In this document: positions 32,688 to 37,682 of the stretch, one piece after another
How the letters are laid out: each line of letters begins with the position of its first letter
Numbering within the stretch: the stretch's first letter is position 1
NCBI RefSeq assembly: GCF_004216905.1
Contig: NZ_SGXJ01000005.1
Coordinates: forward strand, 496,001-560,000
Direction of reading: 5' to 3'
DNA: 64,000 nt
From: Kribbella sp. VKM Ac-2569
GTDB lineage: Bacteria; Actinomycetota; Actinomycetes; Propionibacteriales; Kribbellaceae
The notes under the pieces: model-generated
Told to the model about the DNA's origin: nothing
Seen by the model: the letters and a program-made list of their open reading frames with translations, nothing else
Database searches by the model: none
Program-made: the position numbers and the translations under genes

Positions 32688-34037
32688 TCAGGCGGTTTCG
32701 TCCGGAACCGGCTCCAGTTTCGGGGTCTCGTCCTTCTTCGTGGCCAGCGAATCGATCAGCTGCTTGGCCAGTGCGAAGCCGGAACCTCCCATCGTGATGG
32801 TCTTCACCAGGGTGTCCTCGATGCCCTGGGCACCGTTCAGCACGACCATGTTGCCGACCTTGTCGAACGAGCTCGCCGCGGCGGTGACGATCGCCGGGTA
32901 GGCCTCGGCCAGCTGCTGCGCGACGACGGCCTCGGTGTTGGTGGCCAGCGCCTCGGCGCGCGCCTTGATACCGGCCGCTTCCGCCATCGCCTTGGCCTGT
33001 ACGGCGGACGCCTCGGCCTTACCGTTCAGCTCGGTGGCCTTCGCCTGCGCCTCACCACGCAGCTGGACCTCCCGGGCGTTCGCCTCGGCGGCCGCGATCT
33101 GCGCATCCCGGGCGGCCTGGGCCAGCGTGCGCTGCCGGTACGCTTCGGCGTCGGCCGGCTTCAGCACCGTGGACTCCAGTTGCTTCTCCGACAGCGACGC
33201 GTTCAGCTTGGCGGTCTCCGTCTCGGCTACGACGACCTGCTGGCGGGCCAGCGCCTCGGCCAGCGGACCGGACTGGGATGCCTTCGAGTTCGCCTGGTCG
33301 ACCTCGGCCTGGTAACCGGCCTGGGCGATCGAGCTCTCCCGGACGGCCGCGGCCTTCTTCGCGGCAGCCGCCTGCTCGCGTTCGGTCGCCTCCCGGTCCC
33401 GCTCGGCCTGCGCGATCCGGGCCGCGGCCTCGACCGCGGCGGCCTGCGGACGGCCGAGGTTCTTGATGTAGCCGGACTCGTCGTCGATCTCCTGGATCTG
33501 GAGCGAGTCCACCACCAGGCCGAGCTTCTCCATGTCCCCGGCCAGCGAGCCGCGGATGTTGGTGGTCAGCGTCTCCCGGTCGTGCAGCATCTCCTCGACC
33601 GTCGTGGAGCCGACGATCGCCCGCAGATGACCCGCGAACAGCTCGTGGATGGTGCTCATCACCTGCTCGTCGCTCTGCTCCAGGAACCGCCGGGCCGCGT
33701 TCGCGATCGAGCCGTAGTCGTCACCGACCTTGTACGCCGTGACGCCCTTGATGTGCAGCGGGATGCCCTGGCTGGACACACACGTCACGGTCAGCGGCGT
33801 CGCGCGGATGTCCAGCGGCAACCGCCGTACCGTCTGGAAACCCGGTAGCACCGCGGTGCCGCGGCCGACGACGATCTTGAAACCGAGGGTCTCGTTGACC
33901 TGCTCGGTGCTCGAGTGCGCGCCGAGGCCGGAGATGATCAGCGCCTCGTTCGGCTCCGCCACCCGCCAGACCATCCGGAACAGGATCAGAAGGACGACCA
34001 CCGCGATCGCCGCGATGATCAGGTACGTCCAGAGCAT
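32688..34037 (-). CDS. Flotillin-like SPFH-domain membrane protein
   Basis: A 449-residue flotillin (FloT/YuaG-like) scaffold of ordered membrane domains. One N-terminal membrane segment (about 4-22, LIIAAIAVVVLLILF) is followed by the SPFH/PHB domain (about 25-190, NEALIISGLGAHSS). A long coiled coil (about 195-370) is rich in Ala/Glu/Lys/Arg with EA-type repeats, and a flexible end follows. Bacterial flotillins cluster membrane proteins and affect fluidity and signalling. A minimal NfeD-like gene lies 22 bp upstream in the same direction, the usual flotillin partner. The divergent neighbour is an EACC1-caspase module. Confidence 0.94.
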   Translation of the reverse strand: MLWTYLIIAAIAVVVLLILFRMVWRVAEPNEALIISGLGAHSSTEQVNETLGFKIVVGRGTAVLPGFQTVRRLPLDIRATPLTVTCVSSQGIPLHIKGVTAYKVGDDYGSIANAARRFLEQSDEQVMSTIHELFAGHLRAIVGSTTVEEMLHDRETLTTNIRGSLAGDMEKLGLVVDSLQIQEIDDESGYIKNLGRPQAAAVEAAARIAQAERDREATEREQAAAAKKAAAVRESSIAQAGYQAEVDQANSKASQSGPLAEALARQQVVVAETETAKLNASLSEKQLESTVLKPADAEAYRQRTLAQAARDAQIAAAEANAREVQLRGEAQAKATELNGKAEASAVQAKAMAEAAGIKARAEALATNTEAVVAQQLAEAYPAIVTAAASSFDKVGNMVVLNGAQGIEDTLVKTITMGGSGFALAKQLIDSLATKKDETPKLEPVPDETA

Positions 34038-34254: not shown

Positions 34255-34383
34255 GTTGCCCCTCCGACGCACGTCCGGCTGCTGCAGTTCCCCGAATGCT
34301 AGCTGGCTGTGCGTCTTGTCGCCGGGTCGGTGCAGGAGGATGGTGGAGGAGTCGGTTCGGCCTGGGGGATGGGGGAGGGGGCC

Positions 34384-34767
34384 ATGGGCCACGACGTACT
34401 CGTGGGTGTCGCCGAGGAGGGCGCGGACGACGCGCGCCTCGAGGATCTGGCACTGCTGTTGCGGCGGGAGCTGTTGTCCCTCGAGGTCCGCGCGGTCGAG
34501 CCATATCGCGAAGGCCAAGCGCCGGACGGGACTCGCGGCGCGCTGGCCGCGATCGCCGGCGTGCTGAGTGTTTCGCTCGCCCCAGGTCTGCAGGTACTCG
34601 GTTCGGTGGTGGCTGTCGTGCGGGAATGGCTGCGGCGGGCCGGGGACGGCCGGACGGTGAAGCTCACCATCGACAACGACGTGATCGAGCTGACCGGCAC
34701 CAGCGACGAGCTGCAGCAGCAGCTGGTCGATGCCTTCGTACGCCGGCATGCCGGGGCGGACGTGTGA
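34384..34767 (+). CDS. Effector-associated constant component EACC1-like protein
   Basis: A 127-residue protein that matches the EACC1 family of actinobacterial conflict systems. It has an N-terminal region with DDARLEDLALLLRRELL, a glycine-containing hydrophobic centre (GTRGALAAIAGVLSVSL) and a C-terminal strand-rich part (GRTVKLTIDNDVIELTG). EACC1 proteins are encoded with effectors such as caspases and are thought to be an adaptor or sensor. ATG 34384 is chosen because of the strong GGGGGAGGGGG ribosome-binding site. The caspase gene starts one base after its stop. Confidence 0.75.
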   Translation: MGHDVLVGVAEEGADDARLEDLALLLRRELLSLEVRAVEPYREGQAPDGTRGALAAIAGVLSVSLAPGLQVLGSVVAVVREWLRRAGDGRTVKLTIDNDVIELTGTSDELQQQLVDAFVRRHAGADV

Positions 34768-34768
34768 G

Positions 34769-36889
34769 ATGGACGGTTCGCGCGTCGCGCTCGTGGTGGC
34801 GAACGATCAGTACGACGATCCCGGTCTGAAGCGACTGGTCGCGCCGGCGCAGGACGCTGCCGCGCTCGCGGAGGTGCTGGCGGATCCGTCGGTCGGGGGC
34901 TTCGAGGTCCGCGTGCTGCACAACGAGTCCGCGCAGGAGATCCGGCTCGCCGTCGAGGACTTCTTCGCGGATCGGGCGCCCGAGGACCTGTTGTTGCTGC
35001 ACTTCTCCTGCCACGGGCTCAAGAACGCGGCGGGTGAACTGTTCCTGGCGGTCGCGGACACGAAGCCGGCCCGGCTCGCGTCGACCGCTGTGGCCGCGGA
35101 CTTCGTCAACCGGCAGATGGCGGACAGCCGGGCGCAGCGGATCGCGCTGTTCCTCGACTGTTGTTACGGCGGCGCGTTCCCACGGGGCATGGTTGTCCGC
35201 GCTGCCGGTGAGGCGCAGGTCCGGGACGCGTTCGCGGGCCAGGCCGAGGTCGGCGGTGGTCGAGGTCGCGTGATCGTCACGGCGTCCAGCGCGATGGAGT
35301 ACGCCTTCGAGGGTGGCCAACTGGCGACCGACGCGGCGAAGCCGGCGCCGTCGGTCTTCACCGGCGCGGTCGTGGACGGTCTGAGCACCGGTGAGGCGGA
35401 CAAGGACGGTGACGGCTGGGTGGGCCTGAGCGAGCTGGTCGGGTACGTCACCGACCGGATTCACCGGGTCACGCCGAACCAGAACCCGCAGATGTGGACG
35501 TTCGGCTCGCAGGGCGAGCTGCTGATCGCCCGCAGCCGGGTCCGTCGGATCACTCCCGCTCCGCTCGCTCCGGCACTGCTCGAGGCGATGGAGAGTCCGT
35601 TGCCGGCAGCAAGGTTCGGCGTGGTCGACTACCTGCGCGAACGTCTGTACGACGCCGACCTCGGTCAGGCCTACGCCGCCTGGCAGGCGCTGCACCGGAT
35701 GATCGGCGACGACAGCCGCCGGGTCTCCGACGCGGTGGCCGGCGCGATCGCCGGAGCCGAGCTGGTCGTCACGCCGCCCGAGGTGGAGCTCACCGGCGAG
35801 ACGGCGGAGCTGCGGCTCGAGGGACCGCCGATCGCCTTGACGGCCTCGGCGTCGGCGAGTGTCTCCTGGCTGAAGGTCGAGCAGGACGGTGCGATCGTCC
35901 GGGTCCGCGCCGACGAGGCGGGCGATGCGTCGGTGATCCTCAGCGGGCCGATCGGCGAACGCACGATCCCGGTCCGCGCGACGCTGCCGGACACCGAGTC
36001 CGAACCGCCGGCGCCGCCGCCCGAGCCGGAGCCGGAGCCCGTACCCCGGCCGGCTCCCGTACCCGAGCCACCACAGACCGAGCCACGACAGACCGAGCCA
36101 CCACAGGCCGGGCCGCTCCCCGAGCCGGCCGTCGAGACAGGTCGACCTCCTTGGTGGCTGATCGCCGTACTGATCGTCGGGTCGGTGCTCCTGATCGGGA
36201 TCAACTGGCCGGGTGAGGCCGAGTCGAGCAATCTGTGGTACGACGTCGAGACGACCGGCTGGCACGTGTACCGGAGCTGGCACGATCCGGTCTTCCTGTC
36301 GTCCGTCACAGCACTCGTGGTAAGCCTGATCTCCCGGTGGGCGGGACCTGTCGCTCTCGGTGTCGTCGCGGGCGCGGTCGCCGGCGTCCTCCAGGACGCG
36401 ATCCTGATCCTCGGTGCCGGCATCTGGGAGAACGACACCGAGACGCCGTGGTCCTGGCTCGCGGTGCTCGGGATCGGCTTGGTCCTGGCCGCCGTACTCC
36501 TCGTCGTGCTGAGGCCCGAGCGATGGCGCCTCCGGCCGGTGCCGGTCCGGAGCGCGGCCCTGGTCGTTGCCGGCGGCATCCTCCTGCTGGCGAGTGGGCT
36601 CATCAATCATCCAGACGGCTTCGCCTTCGTCGACGTCACGGTCCTGGCCGTGCTCGAGCCGGTCGTGGTCGTCGCCCTGGCATGGCTCGCACTGGCCGCT
36701 GTCGAGGCACGGGCCCTGACCTGGCTTGTCGCCACAGCGACGACGTACGCCGTGATCAGCGCGATTGCCGCCGTACCTGCGCTGACCGGAGGGGACGCAC
36801 CGGTCGTCTTCCTCGCCGCGCTGCTGGGCAGCGCGCTGATCGTAGCCGGAGTTCTCAGCCGCGTACTGCGCCTTCAGTCGCGCCCTTGA
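34769..36889 (+). CDS. Caspase-like peptidase fused to a multi-pass membrane domain
   Basis: A 706-residue fusion. The N-terminal caspase-like (C14) domain (about 1-260) has the catalytic pair H82 (HFSCHG) and C132 (FLDCCYGG) with a downstream DKDGDGW loop. A helical segment (about 270-330, SPLPAARFGVVDYLRERLYD) and a beta-rich stretch (about 332-405) follow. Then a Pro/Glu linker (about 410-458, with repeated TEP units) leads to a C-terminal part with about eight membrane helices. So the protease should be cytoplasmic and tethered to the membrane. It directly follows EACC1, the known module layout. Such systems are proposed to cause self-killing after a trigger. The last 35 bases overlap a convergent permease gene. 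Confidence 0.9.
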   Translation: MDGSRVALVVANDQYDDPGLKRLVAPAQDAAALAEVLADPSVGGFEVRVLHNESAQEIRLAVEDFFADRAPEDLLLLHFSCHGLKNAAGELFLAVADTKPARLASTAVAADFVNRQMADSRAQRIALFLDCCYGGAFPRGMVVRAAGEAQVRDAFAGQAEVGGGRGRVIVTASSAMEYAFEGGQLATDAAKPAPSVFTGAVVDGLSTGEADKDGDGWVGLSELVGYVTDRIHRVTPNQNPQMWTFGSQGELLIARSRVRRITPAPLAPALLEAMESPLPAARFGVVDYLRERLYDADLGQAYAAWQALHRMIGDDSRRVSDAVAGAIAGAELVVTPPEVELTGETAELRLEGPPIALTASASASVSWLKVEQDGAIVRVRADEAGDASVILSGPIGERTIPVRATLPDTESEPPAPPPEPEPEPVPRPAPVPEPPQTEPRQTEPPQAGPLPEPAVETGRPPWWLIAVLIVGSVLLIGINWPGEAESSNLWYDVETTGWHVYRSWHDPVFLSSVTALVVSLISRWAGPVALGVVAGAVAGVLQDAILILGAGIWENDTETPWSWLAVLGIGLVLAAVLLVVLRPERWRLRPVPVRSAALVVAGGILLLASGLINHPDGFAFVDVTVLAVLEPVVVVALAWLALAAVEARALTWLVATATTYAVISAIAAVPALTGGDAPVVFLAALLGSALIVAGVLSRVLRLQSRP

Positions 36890-37682
36890 TGAACTGGCGA
36901 GCGAAGATCGCGAACACGATCACCAGCGGGATCATCGCCAGCAGCGCGCCGGTCATCACCATGCTGTAGTCCACGCCGTGGGAGCGGTTCAGTGTCGACA
37001 GGGCGACCTGCAGCGTCACGTGGTCCGGGTTGGTCAGCACGATCAGCGGCCACATGTAGTCGTTCCAGGAACCGACGAACGTGAAGATGCCGAGGAACGC
37101 CAGCGCCGGCCGCGCCGACGGCAGCGCGACGTGCCAGTACGTTCCGAAGAAGCCGCAGCCGTCCAGCGTCGCGGCCTCGATCAGCTCGTCGTGGATCGAG
37201 TTCTTGAAGTACTGACGCATCCAGAAGATGCCGAACGCGTTCGCCGCGCCGGGGATGATCAGCGCCTTCAGCGAGCCGACCCAGCCGAGGATCGCCATCG
37301 TCTGGAACTGCGGTACGGCGGCCAGTTGCGCCGGCAGCAGCATCGTCGCCAGCAGGATCACGAACAACGCGTTCCGCCCCGGGAACCGGAACTTGGCGAA
37401 CGTGAACGCCGCCAGTGAGTCGAAGAACAGCACCAGCAACGTGGTCGAGATCGCCACGACCGCGGTGTTCGCCATCGACTGGAAGAACGCGACGTTCTCG
37501 AGCACCTGACGGACGTTGTCGCCGAAATGGCCGCCGAAGCTGAACTTCGGCGGGAAGCGGTAGATGTCCGCGGTCGTGTTGGACGCCATCACGATCGTCC
37601 ACACGAACGGGAACATGAACACCAGCAGCGCCAGCACGAGCGCCGCATGCAGCGCGACGCCGCGCAGCCGGTACCGCGTCAT
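36855..37682 (-). CDS. Carbohydrate ABC transporter permease (MalG type)
   Basis: A 275-residue inner permease subunit of a sugar importer. It has six membrane segments and the EAA loop EAATLDGCGFFGTYWHVALP, where the ATPase docks. Last gene of the four-gene operon pfkB-SBP-permease-permease. The start overlaps the upstream permease stop (ATGA). The C-terminus ends IKGATEGAVRG, typical of the MalG branch. No ATPase gene is in the operon, so it probably shares an MsmK/MalK-like ATPase, as many actinobacterial importers do. Confidence 0.95.
   Translation of the reverse strand: MTRYRLRGVALHAALVLALLVFMFPFVWTIVMASNTTADIYRFPPKFSFGGHFGDNVRQVLENVAFFQSMANTAVVAISTTLLVLFFDSLAAFTFAKFRFPGRNALFVILLATMLLPAQLAAVPQFQTMAILGWVGSLKALIIPGAANAFGIFWMRQYFKNSIHDELIEAATLDGCGFFGTYWHVALPSARPALAFLGIFTFVGSWNDYMWPLIVLTNPDHVTLQVALSTLNRSHGVDYSMVMTGALLAMIPLVIVFAIFARQFIKGATEGAVRG

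What the first reader, a model, noticed from the sequence alone, without database searches (positions are those of the whole stretch)
34384..36889. EACC1 plus caspase fused to a C-terminal multi-pass membrane domain
EACC1-effector pairs are known actinobacterial conflict modules. Here the caspase has an intact H82/C132 dyad, a helical segment, a beta-rich segment, a 50-residue Pro/Glu linker and about eight membrane helices. A membrane-tethered caspase could sense membrane disturbance, or cleave near pores it forms itself. No third gene (NTPase or other trigger) is in the unit, so the trigger may be in the membrane part or in the adjacent flotillin/NfeD pair.
Basis: partly seen in the sequence, partly recalled or inferred. 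Interest (0 to 1): 0.72.

Follow-up and report, generated by a model that had tools for sequence, protein, structure and literature searches.

The report
Membrane-anchored bacterial caspase with calcium-loop motif
A soil bacterium carries a two-gene unit whose second protein is a caspase-like cutting enzyme tied to the cell membrane by eight helices; it belongs to a known but untested class of predicted bacterial self-defence or suicide modules, and a calcium-loop-like motif and a fast-changing membrane part make its trigger testable.

Summary
EACC1 (34384-34767) is followed by a 706-aa caspase (34769-36889; H82/C132) with a helical segment, a beta-sandwich, a Pro/Glu linker and eight TM helices (AlphaFold2 pLDDT 88). 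The frame and helices are conserved in Kribbella relatives. The pair belongs to a published class (Kaur 2020, 'System 4'), so the kind is known. Added here: (1) the caspase holds an EF-hand-like loop (D211-E222) in 70 of 72 relatives, but only 5 of 22 caspases of a broader sample have it, so it marks a subfamily. (2) Its best solved relative is MALT1; D29 and D130 align with MALT1 aspartates, so cleavage after Arg/Lys is predicted. (3) The unit sits at one address between nfeD-flotillin and a permease: 24 of 38 Kribbella genomes have it, 1 keeps a remnant, 13 lack it; the tree forces at least five changes. (4) The caspase is frozen (dN/dS 0.09), the membrane domain fast (0.52) and duplicated in 5 of 24; parts have conflicting trees. 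Flotillin/NfeD is an address, not a partner (0 of 57 loci elsewhere have it nearby). Best reading: a caspase held at the membrane and switched on there, perhaps by Ca2+ and clustering, with an exchangeable sensor. Function is untested.

The parts
34384..34767 (+). EACC1 gene, 127 aa, hydrophobic stretch around residues 53-79
   Evidence: hydropathy maximum 1.88
34315..34344 (+). promoter-like pair upstream of EACC1 (CTTGTC, 18 bases, GATGGT), divergent from nfeD; found by eye
   Evidence: similar pairs with the same spacing seen by eye in a few unit-bearing relatives; inference
34769..36889 (+). caspase-8TM gene, 706 aa; last 35 bases overlap the 3' end of the convergent permease gene
34769..35536 (+). 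caspase domain (residues 1-256), H82 at 35012-35014, C132 at 35162-35164
35399..35434 (+). EF-hand-like loop D211-x-D213-x-D215-G216-x-V218-x-x-x-E222 inside the caspase domain
   Evidence: pattern in 70 of 72; 0 elsewhere in 44,437 residues; helix-loop-helix in the model
35570..35755 (+). helical segment, residues 268-329
   Evidence: sub-threshold Arm-repeat matches in two relatives
35765..35980 (+). beta-sandwich, residues 333-404, Ig/BACON-like (name inferred)
   Evidence: pLDDT 93-97 per block, 86 in the last; sub-threshold BACON match in one relative
35996..36148 (+). Pro/Glu-rich linker, residues 410-460
   Evidence: block pLDDT 44-62
36152..36865 (+). eight-TM domain, residues 462-699, N-in/C-in; outer loop 1 (479-506) with a beta-hairpin
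   Evidence: no Pfam hit of the longer frame
32688..34037 (-). flotillin gene (left border; not held to be a functional part)
36855..37682 (-). permease gene, ABC-transporter type by reading, not searched (right border)

Best explanation
A two-gene conflict (self-defence or programmed-death) module of the EACC1-caspase class. The second protein is a cytosolic caspase held at the membrane by a C-terminal eight-helix domain on a flexible Pro/Glu tether. SHOWN: sequence architecture, intact dyad, EF-hand-like loop, predicted topology, fixed chromosomal address with presence/absence turnover, frozen caspase and fast, mosaic membrane domain. INFERRED: the variable membrane domain (with EACC1) detects a change at the envelope; clustering and/or Ca2+ entering through a damaged membrane and binding the loop turns the caspase on; it then cuts host proteins after Arg/Lys and stops or kills the cell.
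For: Family: NF047832 over cut-off, EACC1 one base upstream, class described in PMC7159879 section 33. Catalysis: H82, C132 and D130 in 72 of 72, D29 in 71 of 72; D29, H82, D130 and C132 align with MALT1 residues (profile E 7.7e-5; VIA Z 23.6, 203 residues, 2.5 A). Calcium: loop in 70 of 72, helix-loop-helix in the model; Asr1131, calmodulin and calcineurin B match within residues 206-240 weakly (E 0.06, 0.21, 0.28). Membrane: eight helices, positive-inside. Exchangeable C-terminus: related caspases carry beta-propeller, DnaJ_C, RDD or (under its cut-off) DUF1349 ends. Conflict-like evolution: 24 unit / 1 remnant / 13 empty of 38, at least 5 changes forced, dN/dS 0.09 caspase against 0.52 membrane, conflicting trees of the parts, second membrane domain in 5 of 24. 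Caspase without EACC1 (G023) and EACC1 without caspase (G022) both occur at this locus, so EACC1 is not a needed antidote there.
Against: No experiment on an EACC1 system was seen in the listings (20 of 24 listed). G023 keeps an intact caspase without EACC1 in the roughly 170 bases up to nfeD, so the pair is not obligatory, though both G023 and G022 have other EACC1-caspases elsewhere. The beta-sandwich is missing in G023 and probably G050. The loop is absent in 17 of 22 caspases of the broader sample, some of them directly downstream of an over-cut-off EACC1, so Ca2+ cannot be the trigger of all EACC1-caspases. Pfam sees no EF-hand. dN/dS 0.52 does not show positive selection; outer loops are not the most variable part. 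No phage record matched; a defence-island context was not tested.
Confidence: 0.5

Rival explanations
1. Published model for the class: EACC1 senses at the membrane, the caspase cuts itself off, and the C-terminal part is the released effector (here an eight-helix pore or membrane poison).
For: Proposed for EACC1 systems in PMC7159879; multi-TM ends that might form pores are proposed for the analogous EACC2 systems in PMC8195603 (passages); C-termini are variable, as effectors would be.
Against: No K/R is invariant or nearly invariant between residues 405 and 460 in 14 orthologues, although basic P1 is predicted; releasing an already embedded eight-helix domain changes little (inference); few polar TM residues are conserved.
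Confidence: 0.22
2. A developmental or envelope-maintenance protease of a filamentous soil bacterium, not a conflict module.
For: Chromosomal, at one address, caspase under strong purifying selection; no phage record matched.
Against: Absent or deleted in 14 of 38 genomes, with at least 5 forced changes; conflicting trees of the parts. Core developmental genes are not expected to behave so (inference).
Confidence: 0.18
3. Toxin-antitoxin pair with EACC1 as the antidote of the caspase.
For: Two closely spaced genes, small one first.
Against: G023 has the caspase and not EACC1 at the locus, and 5 of 71 collection loci have no detectable EACC1.
Confidence: 0.05
4. Partner of the neighbouring NfeD-flotillin pair (membrane-raft stress).
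For: Adjacency kept in the unit-bearing Kribbella genomes whose locus was read.
Against: nfeD and flotillin present in 13 of 13 unit-less genomes; 0 of 57 loci outside this address have either nearby; divergent genes.
Confidence: 0.05

Closest known systems
EACC1 two-gene conflict system ('System 4', Kaur et al. 2020, PMC7159879; NCBIfam NF047832; Pfam PF19953)
   Same: 5' EACC1, 3' N-terminal caspase, variable C-terminus, actinobacterial; the paper already states that at least 33% of the caspase proteins contain TM helices (section 33).
   Different: EF-hand-like loop in the caspase, EACC1 below the Pfam cut-off, an eight-helix family that section 33 does not describe, and a polymorphic chromosomal address.
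MALT1 paracaspase
   Same: Caspase fold, H/C dyad, D-x-C motif, aligned D29. Foldseek's best row runs over 459 columns of a caspase-Ig3 construct, which suggests, without residues seen, that the beta-sandwich pairs with Ig3.
   Different: No death or Ig domain in front, bacterial, membrane tail; rmsd 18.9 A over that long alignment; VIA aligned only residues 1-255; metacaspase-4 (Z 22.2) and caspase-7 (22.0) are close behind MALT1 (23.6).
EACC2-caspase systems (PMC8195603, passages)
   Same: Constant component plus caspase plus variable tail; multi-TM tails reported.
   Different: EACC2 is fused in front of the caspase and is described as a different alpha+beta domain; not compared by sequence here.
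Orthocaspases / metacaspases
   Same: Cleavage after positively charged residues is stated for orthocaspases (abstract of PMC6426788); Ca2+ dependence of some metacaspases (passage).
   Different: There the calcium-related residue is an Asp at the start of p10, or EF-hand motifs are extra domains in 7 archaeal proteins; here the loop lies inside the caspase domain.

Membership tests
EACC1-caspase two-gene system | 5' EACC1 gene | tested here: met
   By descent rather than by cut-off: PF19953 E 6.3e-4 but 20.1 bits, under the cut-off, and not listed; homologous (E 3e-10) to the own-genome gene that is over it
EACC1-caspase two-gene system | 3' gene with N-terminal caspase of the EACC1-associated type | tested here: met
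   NF047832 160.9 bits, cut-off 140
EACC1-caspase two-gene system | variable C-terminal domain | tested here: met
EACC1-caspase two-gene system | TM helix with small-residue patch in EACC1 | tested here: inconclusive
   hydropathy 1.88; no structure made of EACC1
EACC1-caspase two-gene system | role in biological conflict | not testable with these tools
   prediction only, also in the literature seen
MALT1-type paracaspase | caspase fold with H/C dyad and acidic S1 pocket | tested here: met
   the pocket role of the aspartates is recalled
MALT1-type paracaspase | N-terminal death domain and Ig domains (recalled) | tested here: not met
   protein begins with the caspase domain; so not filed as a member
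EF-hand | 12-residue D-x-D-x-D-G loop between helices | tested here: met
EF-hand | recognised by Pfam EF-hand models | tested here: not met
   no EF-hand family among the Pfam hits to E 1; so 'EF-hand-like' only
EF-hand | binds Ca2+ | not testable with these tools
   needs titration

The most novel reading that the evidence does not exclude
A bacterial, MALT1-like, calcium-gated caspase parked at the membrane: Ca2+ entering through a breached membrane fills a loop built into the caspase domain and switches on Arg/Lys cleavage, while a recombining eight-helix domain sets what breach is noticed. A one-protein breach alarm of a kind not seen in the papers listed or read here.
Probability: 0.28. 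Interest if true: 0.78.

Novelty: new variant of a known kind. Interest (0 to 1): 0.52.

Why it matters
EACC1-caspase modules are predicted immune or suicide systems of multicellular actinobacteria, but no trigger is known to me and no test was seen in the searches. The loop gives a single-mutation, cell-free test of a trigger (Ca2+), D29/D130 predict the substrate class, and the polymorphic address gives natural pairs of close relatives with and without the unit (G000 and G011).

Tried and rejected
Flotillin/NfeD partnership: disfavoured. Antitoxin role of EACC1: disfavoured. EACC1 bound to the beta-sandwich because both are lost in G023: dropped, since G050 seems to lack the sandwich and keeps EACC1. 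Internal 4+4 helix repeat: not found. Membrane domain in Pfam or PDB by sequence: no convincing match. All membrane domains one family: unproven; cluster 0 (Kribbella, one Nocardioides, two Asanoa) against cluster 1 scores 31.6 over 258 columns, probability 68%. Taken singly, the two best of 14 cluster-1 members score 17.1 and 11.6 over more than 230 columns and two of three cluster-3 members 16.8 and 13.1, but most others lie near the 11 control membrane proteins, whose best is 6.7; that control is small. First AlphaFold job (14 close rows) was poor, pLDDT 52; the second (70 rows) gave 88. EACC1 structure was not predicted. Mobile DNA: phages no match; plasmids 21 records, all under 60% identity, and in the 15 rows shown only the caspase region matches. 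The EACC1 profile used was built from Kribbella alone, and its misses are not absences (compare).

Limits of the counts: the 71 loci were found with two Kribbella peptides, so 51 of 68 is not a class-wide rate; among 30 loci of the even class sample 27 could be read, 16 of these were cut by the end of the stretch, and 2 of 27 had four or more TM helices, one being this genome's own paralogue. TM counts are from a simple hydropathy rule. dN/dS (Nei-Gojobori) is from 120 sampled pairs per segment. AU tests used 22 of 24 genomes (G023 lacks EACC1, G039 the permease match); 19 of 20 foreign trees were rejected, the exception being membrane data on the EACC1 tree (AU 0.127, KH and SH 0); by the SH test the flank tree is not rejected by the middle segment (0.082) and barely by the caspase (0.048). 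G001 is split by contig ends. EACC1 starts of relatives were set by homology, not curated. In one search only 9 first-look candidates per genome were scored.

Full report
WHAT IS THERE. The window lies at G000:C5:496001-560000. EACC1 occupies 34384-34767 and the caspase gene 34769-36889, one base apart. H82 is at 35012-35014 and C132 at 35162-35164. The caspase's last 35 bases overlap the end of the convergent permease gene at 36855.

FAMILY. Peptidase_C14 (E 1.6e-18) and NCBIfam caspase_w_EACC1 (160.9 bits, cut-off 140). EACC1 scores 20.1 bits against a Pfam cut-off of 23.6 and was not listed in the genome-wide EACC1 search, but it is homologous to the gene upstream of the genome's second EACC1-caspase (908 aa, G000:C10), which is over the cut-off. 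[quoted passage not shown] I read section 33 of PMC7159879 and passages. It says that at least 33% of the caspase proteins have TM helices and that up to 50 different domains follow the caspase. So the general architecture is known. A word search for EACC1 listed 13 papers, of which two concern this domain by their titles; the full name is in one. No experiment was seen in the listings (20 of 24 listed).

STRUCTURE. AlphaFold2 with 70 sequences gives pLDDT 88: caspase 1-256, helices 268-329, beta-sandwich 333-404, a low-confidence Pro/Glu linker, eight TM helices within 462-699, and a beta-hairpin (488-501) in the first outer loop. K/R counts over 25 sequences fit N-in/C-in: inner loops and C-terminus 1.2-2.4, outer loops 2-4 0.04-0.36; outer loop 1 has 2.6 K/R and 3.3 D/E. 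Pfam gives nothing convincing for the membrane domain in 15 members (best E 0.0033, under the cut-off), and PDB sequences nothing to E 1. Its fold against the PDB was not tested apart from the caspase.

CASPASE. By sequence profile the nearest solved protein is MALT1 (E 7.7e-5). By structure too (VIA Z 23.6 over 203 residues at 2.5 A), with metacaspase-4 at 22.2 and caspase-7 at 22.0, so MALT1 leads only slightly. In the printed alignment D29, H82, D130 and C132 fall on the same letters in MALT1. That these aspartates line an Arg-accepting pocket in MALT1 is recalled; that MALT1 cuts after Arg and orthocaspases after positively charged residues is from abstracts in the listings (PMC3500650 and PMC6426788). 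H82, C132 and D130 are in 72 of 72 and D29 in 71 of 72 sequences.

EF-HAND-LIKE LOOP. Residues 211-222 read D-x-D-x-D-G-x-V-x-x-x-E. A slightly degenerate 12-residue pattern of this kind is in 70 of 72 sequences at this place; the other two lack only the glycine. It occurs 0 times in the other 44,437 residues of the same proteins. The model has helix 196-207, strand 217-219 and helix 220-234. Pfam reports no EF-hand. Of 30 loci drawn from the broader family, 22 showed a readable active-site motif, 5 with the loop (one is this genome's paralogue) and 17 without. At least five of those without it (L171-L175) have an over-cut-off EACC1 directly upstream. The loop therefore marks a subfamily, not the class. 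'Calcium' and 'EF-hand' do not occur in the main text of PMC7159879. In PMC8195603 'EF-hand' does not occur and the four places of 'calcium' concern other matters. PMC6426788 mentions EF-hand motifs as additional domains in 7 archaeal orthocaspases. Searches (12 of 17 listed; 12 of 53 listed) showed no title that reports such a loop; I did not read those papers, beyond the passages of PMC6426788.

RELATIVES. A scan of genome contigs gave 71 loci. EACC1 is detectable in 66 of 71. Of 68 complete proteins, 51 have four or more TM helices, under 21 of 26 genus labels. Membrane parts fall into families; the largest joins Kribbella, one Nocardioides and two Asanoa. Evidence for wider links is weak. 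The Kribbella-built profile of the membrane domain finds it in 24 of 38 Kribbella genomes and in 1 of 296 genomes of a class sample, the window's own. Related caspases carry other ends: beta-propeller (L050) and RDD (L110), both with EACC1 nearby; DnaJ_C (L056) and, under its cut-off, DUF1349 (L048), where no EACC1 was found; others a P-loop-like part by reading.

ADDRESS AND TURNOVER. In Kribbella the unit lies between nfeD-flotillin and the permease. Of 38 genomes 24 carry it, one (G022) keeps EACC1 with a 55-codon in-frame remnant of the caspase gene, and 13 lack it. In 9 of the 13, 45-73 bases separate the nfeD and permease matches; in 3 about 745-795 bases (another gene, listed in two); in 1 no permease was found in the stretch. 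On the tree of the flanking genes presence/absence needs 9 changes, at least 5 forced by starred branches; 30 of 500 shuffles were as low. G000 is sister to the empty G011 (100/95). G022 shows that loss occurs; the direction of the other changes is open. All 14 loci at this address have nfeD and flotillin; 0 of the other 57 have either within the fetched flank. Flotillin and nfeD are present in 13 of 13 unit-less genomes, in G014 with flotillin split over two contigs.

RATES. Median dN/dS: caspase 0.09, EACC1 0.22, middle 0.32, membrane 0.52, flotillin 0.16, permease 0.20. Median dS is 0.70-0.82 in the unit and 0.28-0.42 in the flanks. In AU tests on 22 genomes each part rejects the trees of the other parts and of the flanks in 19 of 20 comparisons; the milder SH test does not reject the flank tree for the middle segment. 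Nearest alleles of the window differ by part: EACC1 G009 (93%), caspase G040/G020/G008 (93%), middle G048 (81%), membrane G040 (62%). Five of 24 alleles (G007, G024, G039, G042, G047) have a second membrane domain: four by profile, G047 by reading; the profile of four second copies, G042 left out, matches the first at 99% probability. Outer loops (0.55) are slightly better conserved than helices (0.50), so there is no sign that the outside is the hypervariable face.

EXPLANATION. A frozen protease with a fast, exchangeable, duplicable membrane tail at a gain/loss locus fits a conflict module in which the tail recognises and the caspase acts. The loop offers a direct trigger: Ca2+ is low in the cytosol (established knowledge) and would rise at a breached membrane. 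Clustering, as for MALT1 (recalled), is the alternative or additional step. What is shown stops at sequence anatomy and evolution; sensing, Ca2+ binding, cleavage and death are inferred. EACC1 without caspase (G022) and caspase without EACC1 (G023) argue against an antidote role, with the reserve that both genomes hold other EACC1-caspases.

Noticed in passing
L050:6234-8954 (-): The same genome has a second EACC1-caspase (907-908 aa) with several TM helices and a C-terminal beta-propeller; similar-length relatives occur in other Kribbella genomes.
   Followed up: partly
L162:5302-5946 (-), L163:4027-4677 (+): In unit-less G044 and G019 (and by sequence start G005) the same address holds another gene of about 215 aa; it looks like a mycothiol-dependent isomerase/DinB-type protein (name recalled, not searched).
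   Followed up: no
L051, L052, L053: EACC1-caspases with similar helical and beta parts but a P-loop GTPase-like C-terminus (by reading) after a long Pro-rich linker.
   Followed up: partly
L090: Record named Streptomyces sp. SID13031 carries the Kribbella locus; its contig length equals that of G050 in the window's genus, so the name is probably wrong.
   Followed up: no
window 36855-36889: The caspase gene's last codons overlap the end of the permease gene on the other strand; the C-terminal SRP/SHP may be kept for that reason.
   Followed up: no
L093:3971-6856 (+), Asanoa iriomotensis: A 962-aa caspase with 15 predicted TM helices and no detectable EACC1 in the locus.
   Followed up: no
G006:C12:43773-44463 (L054): A second EACC1-caspase of G006 is split over two frames, so it may be decaying.
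   Followed up: no
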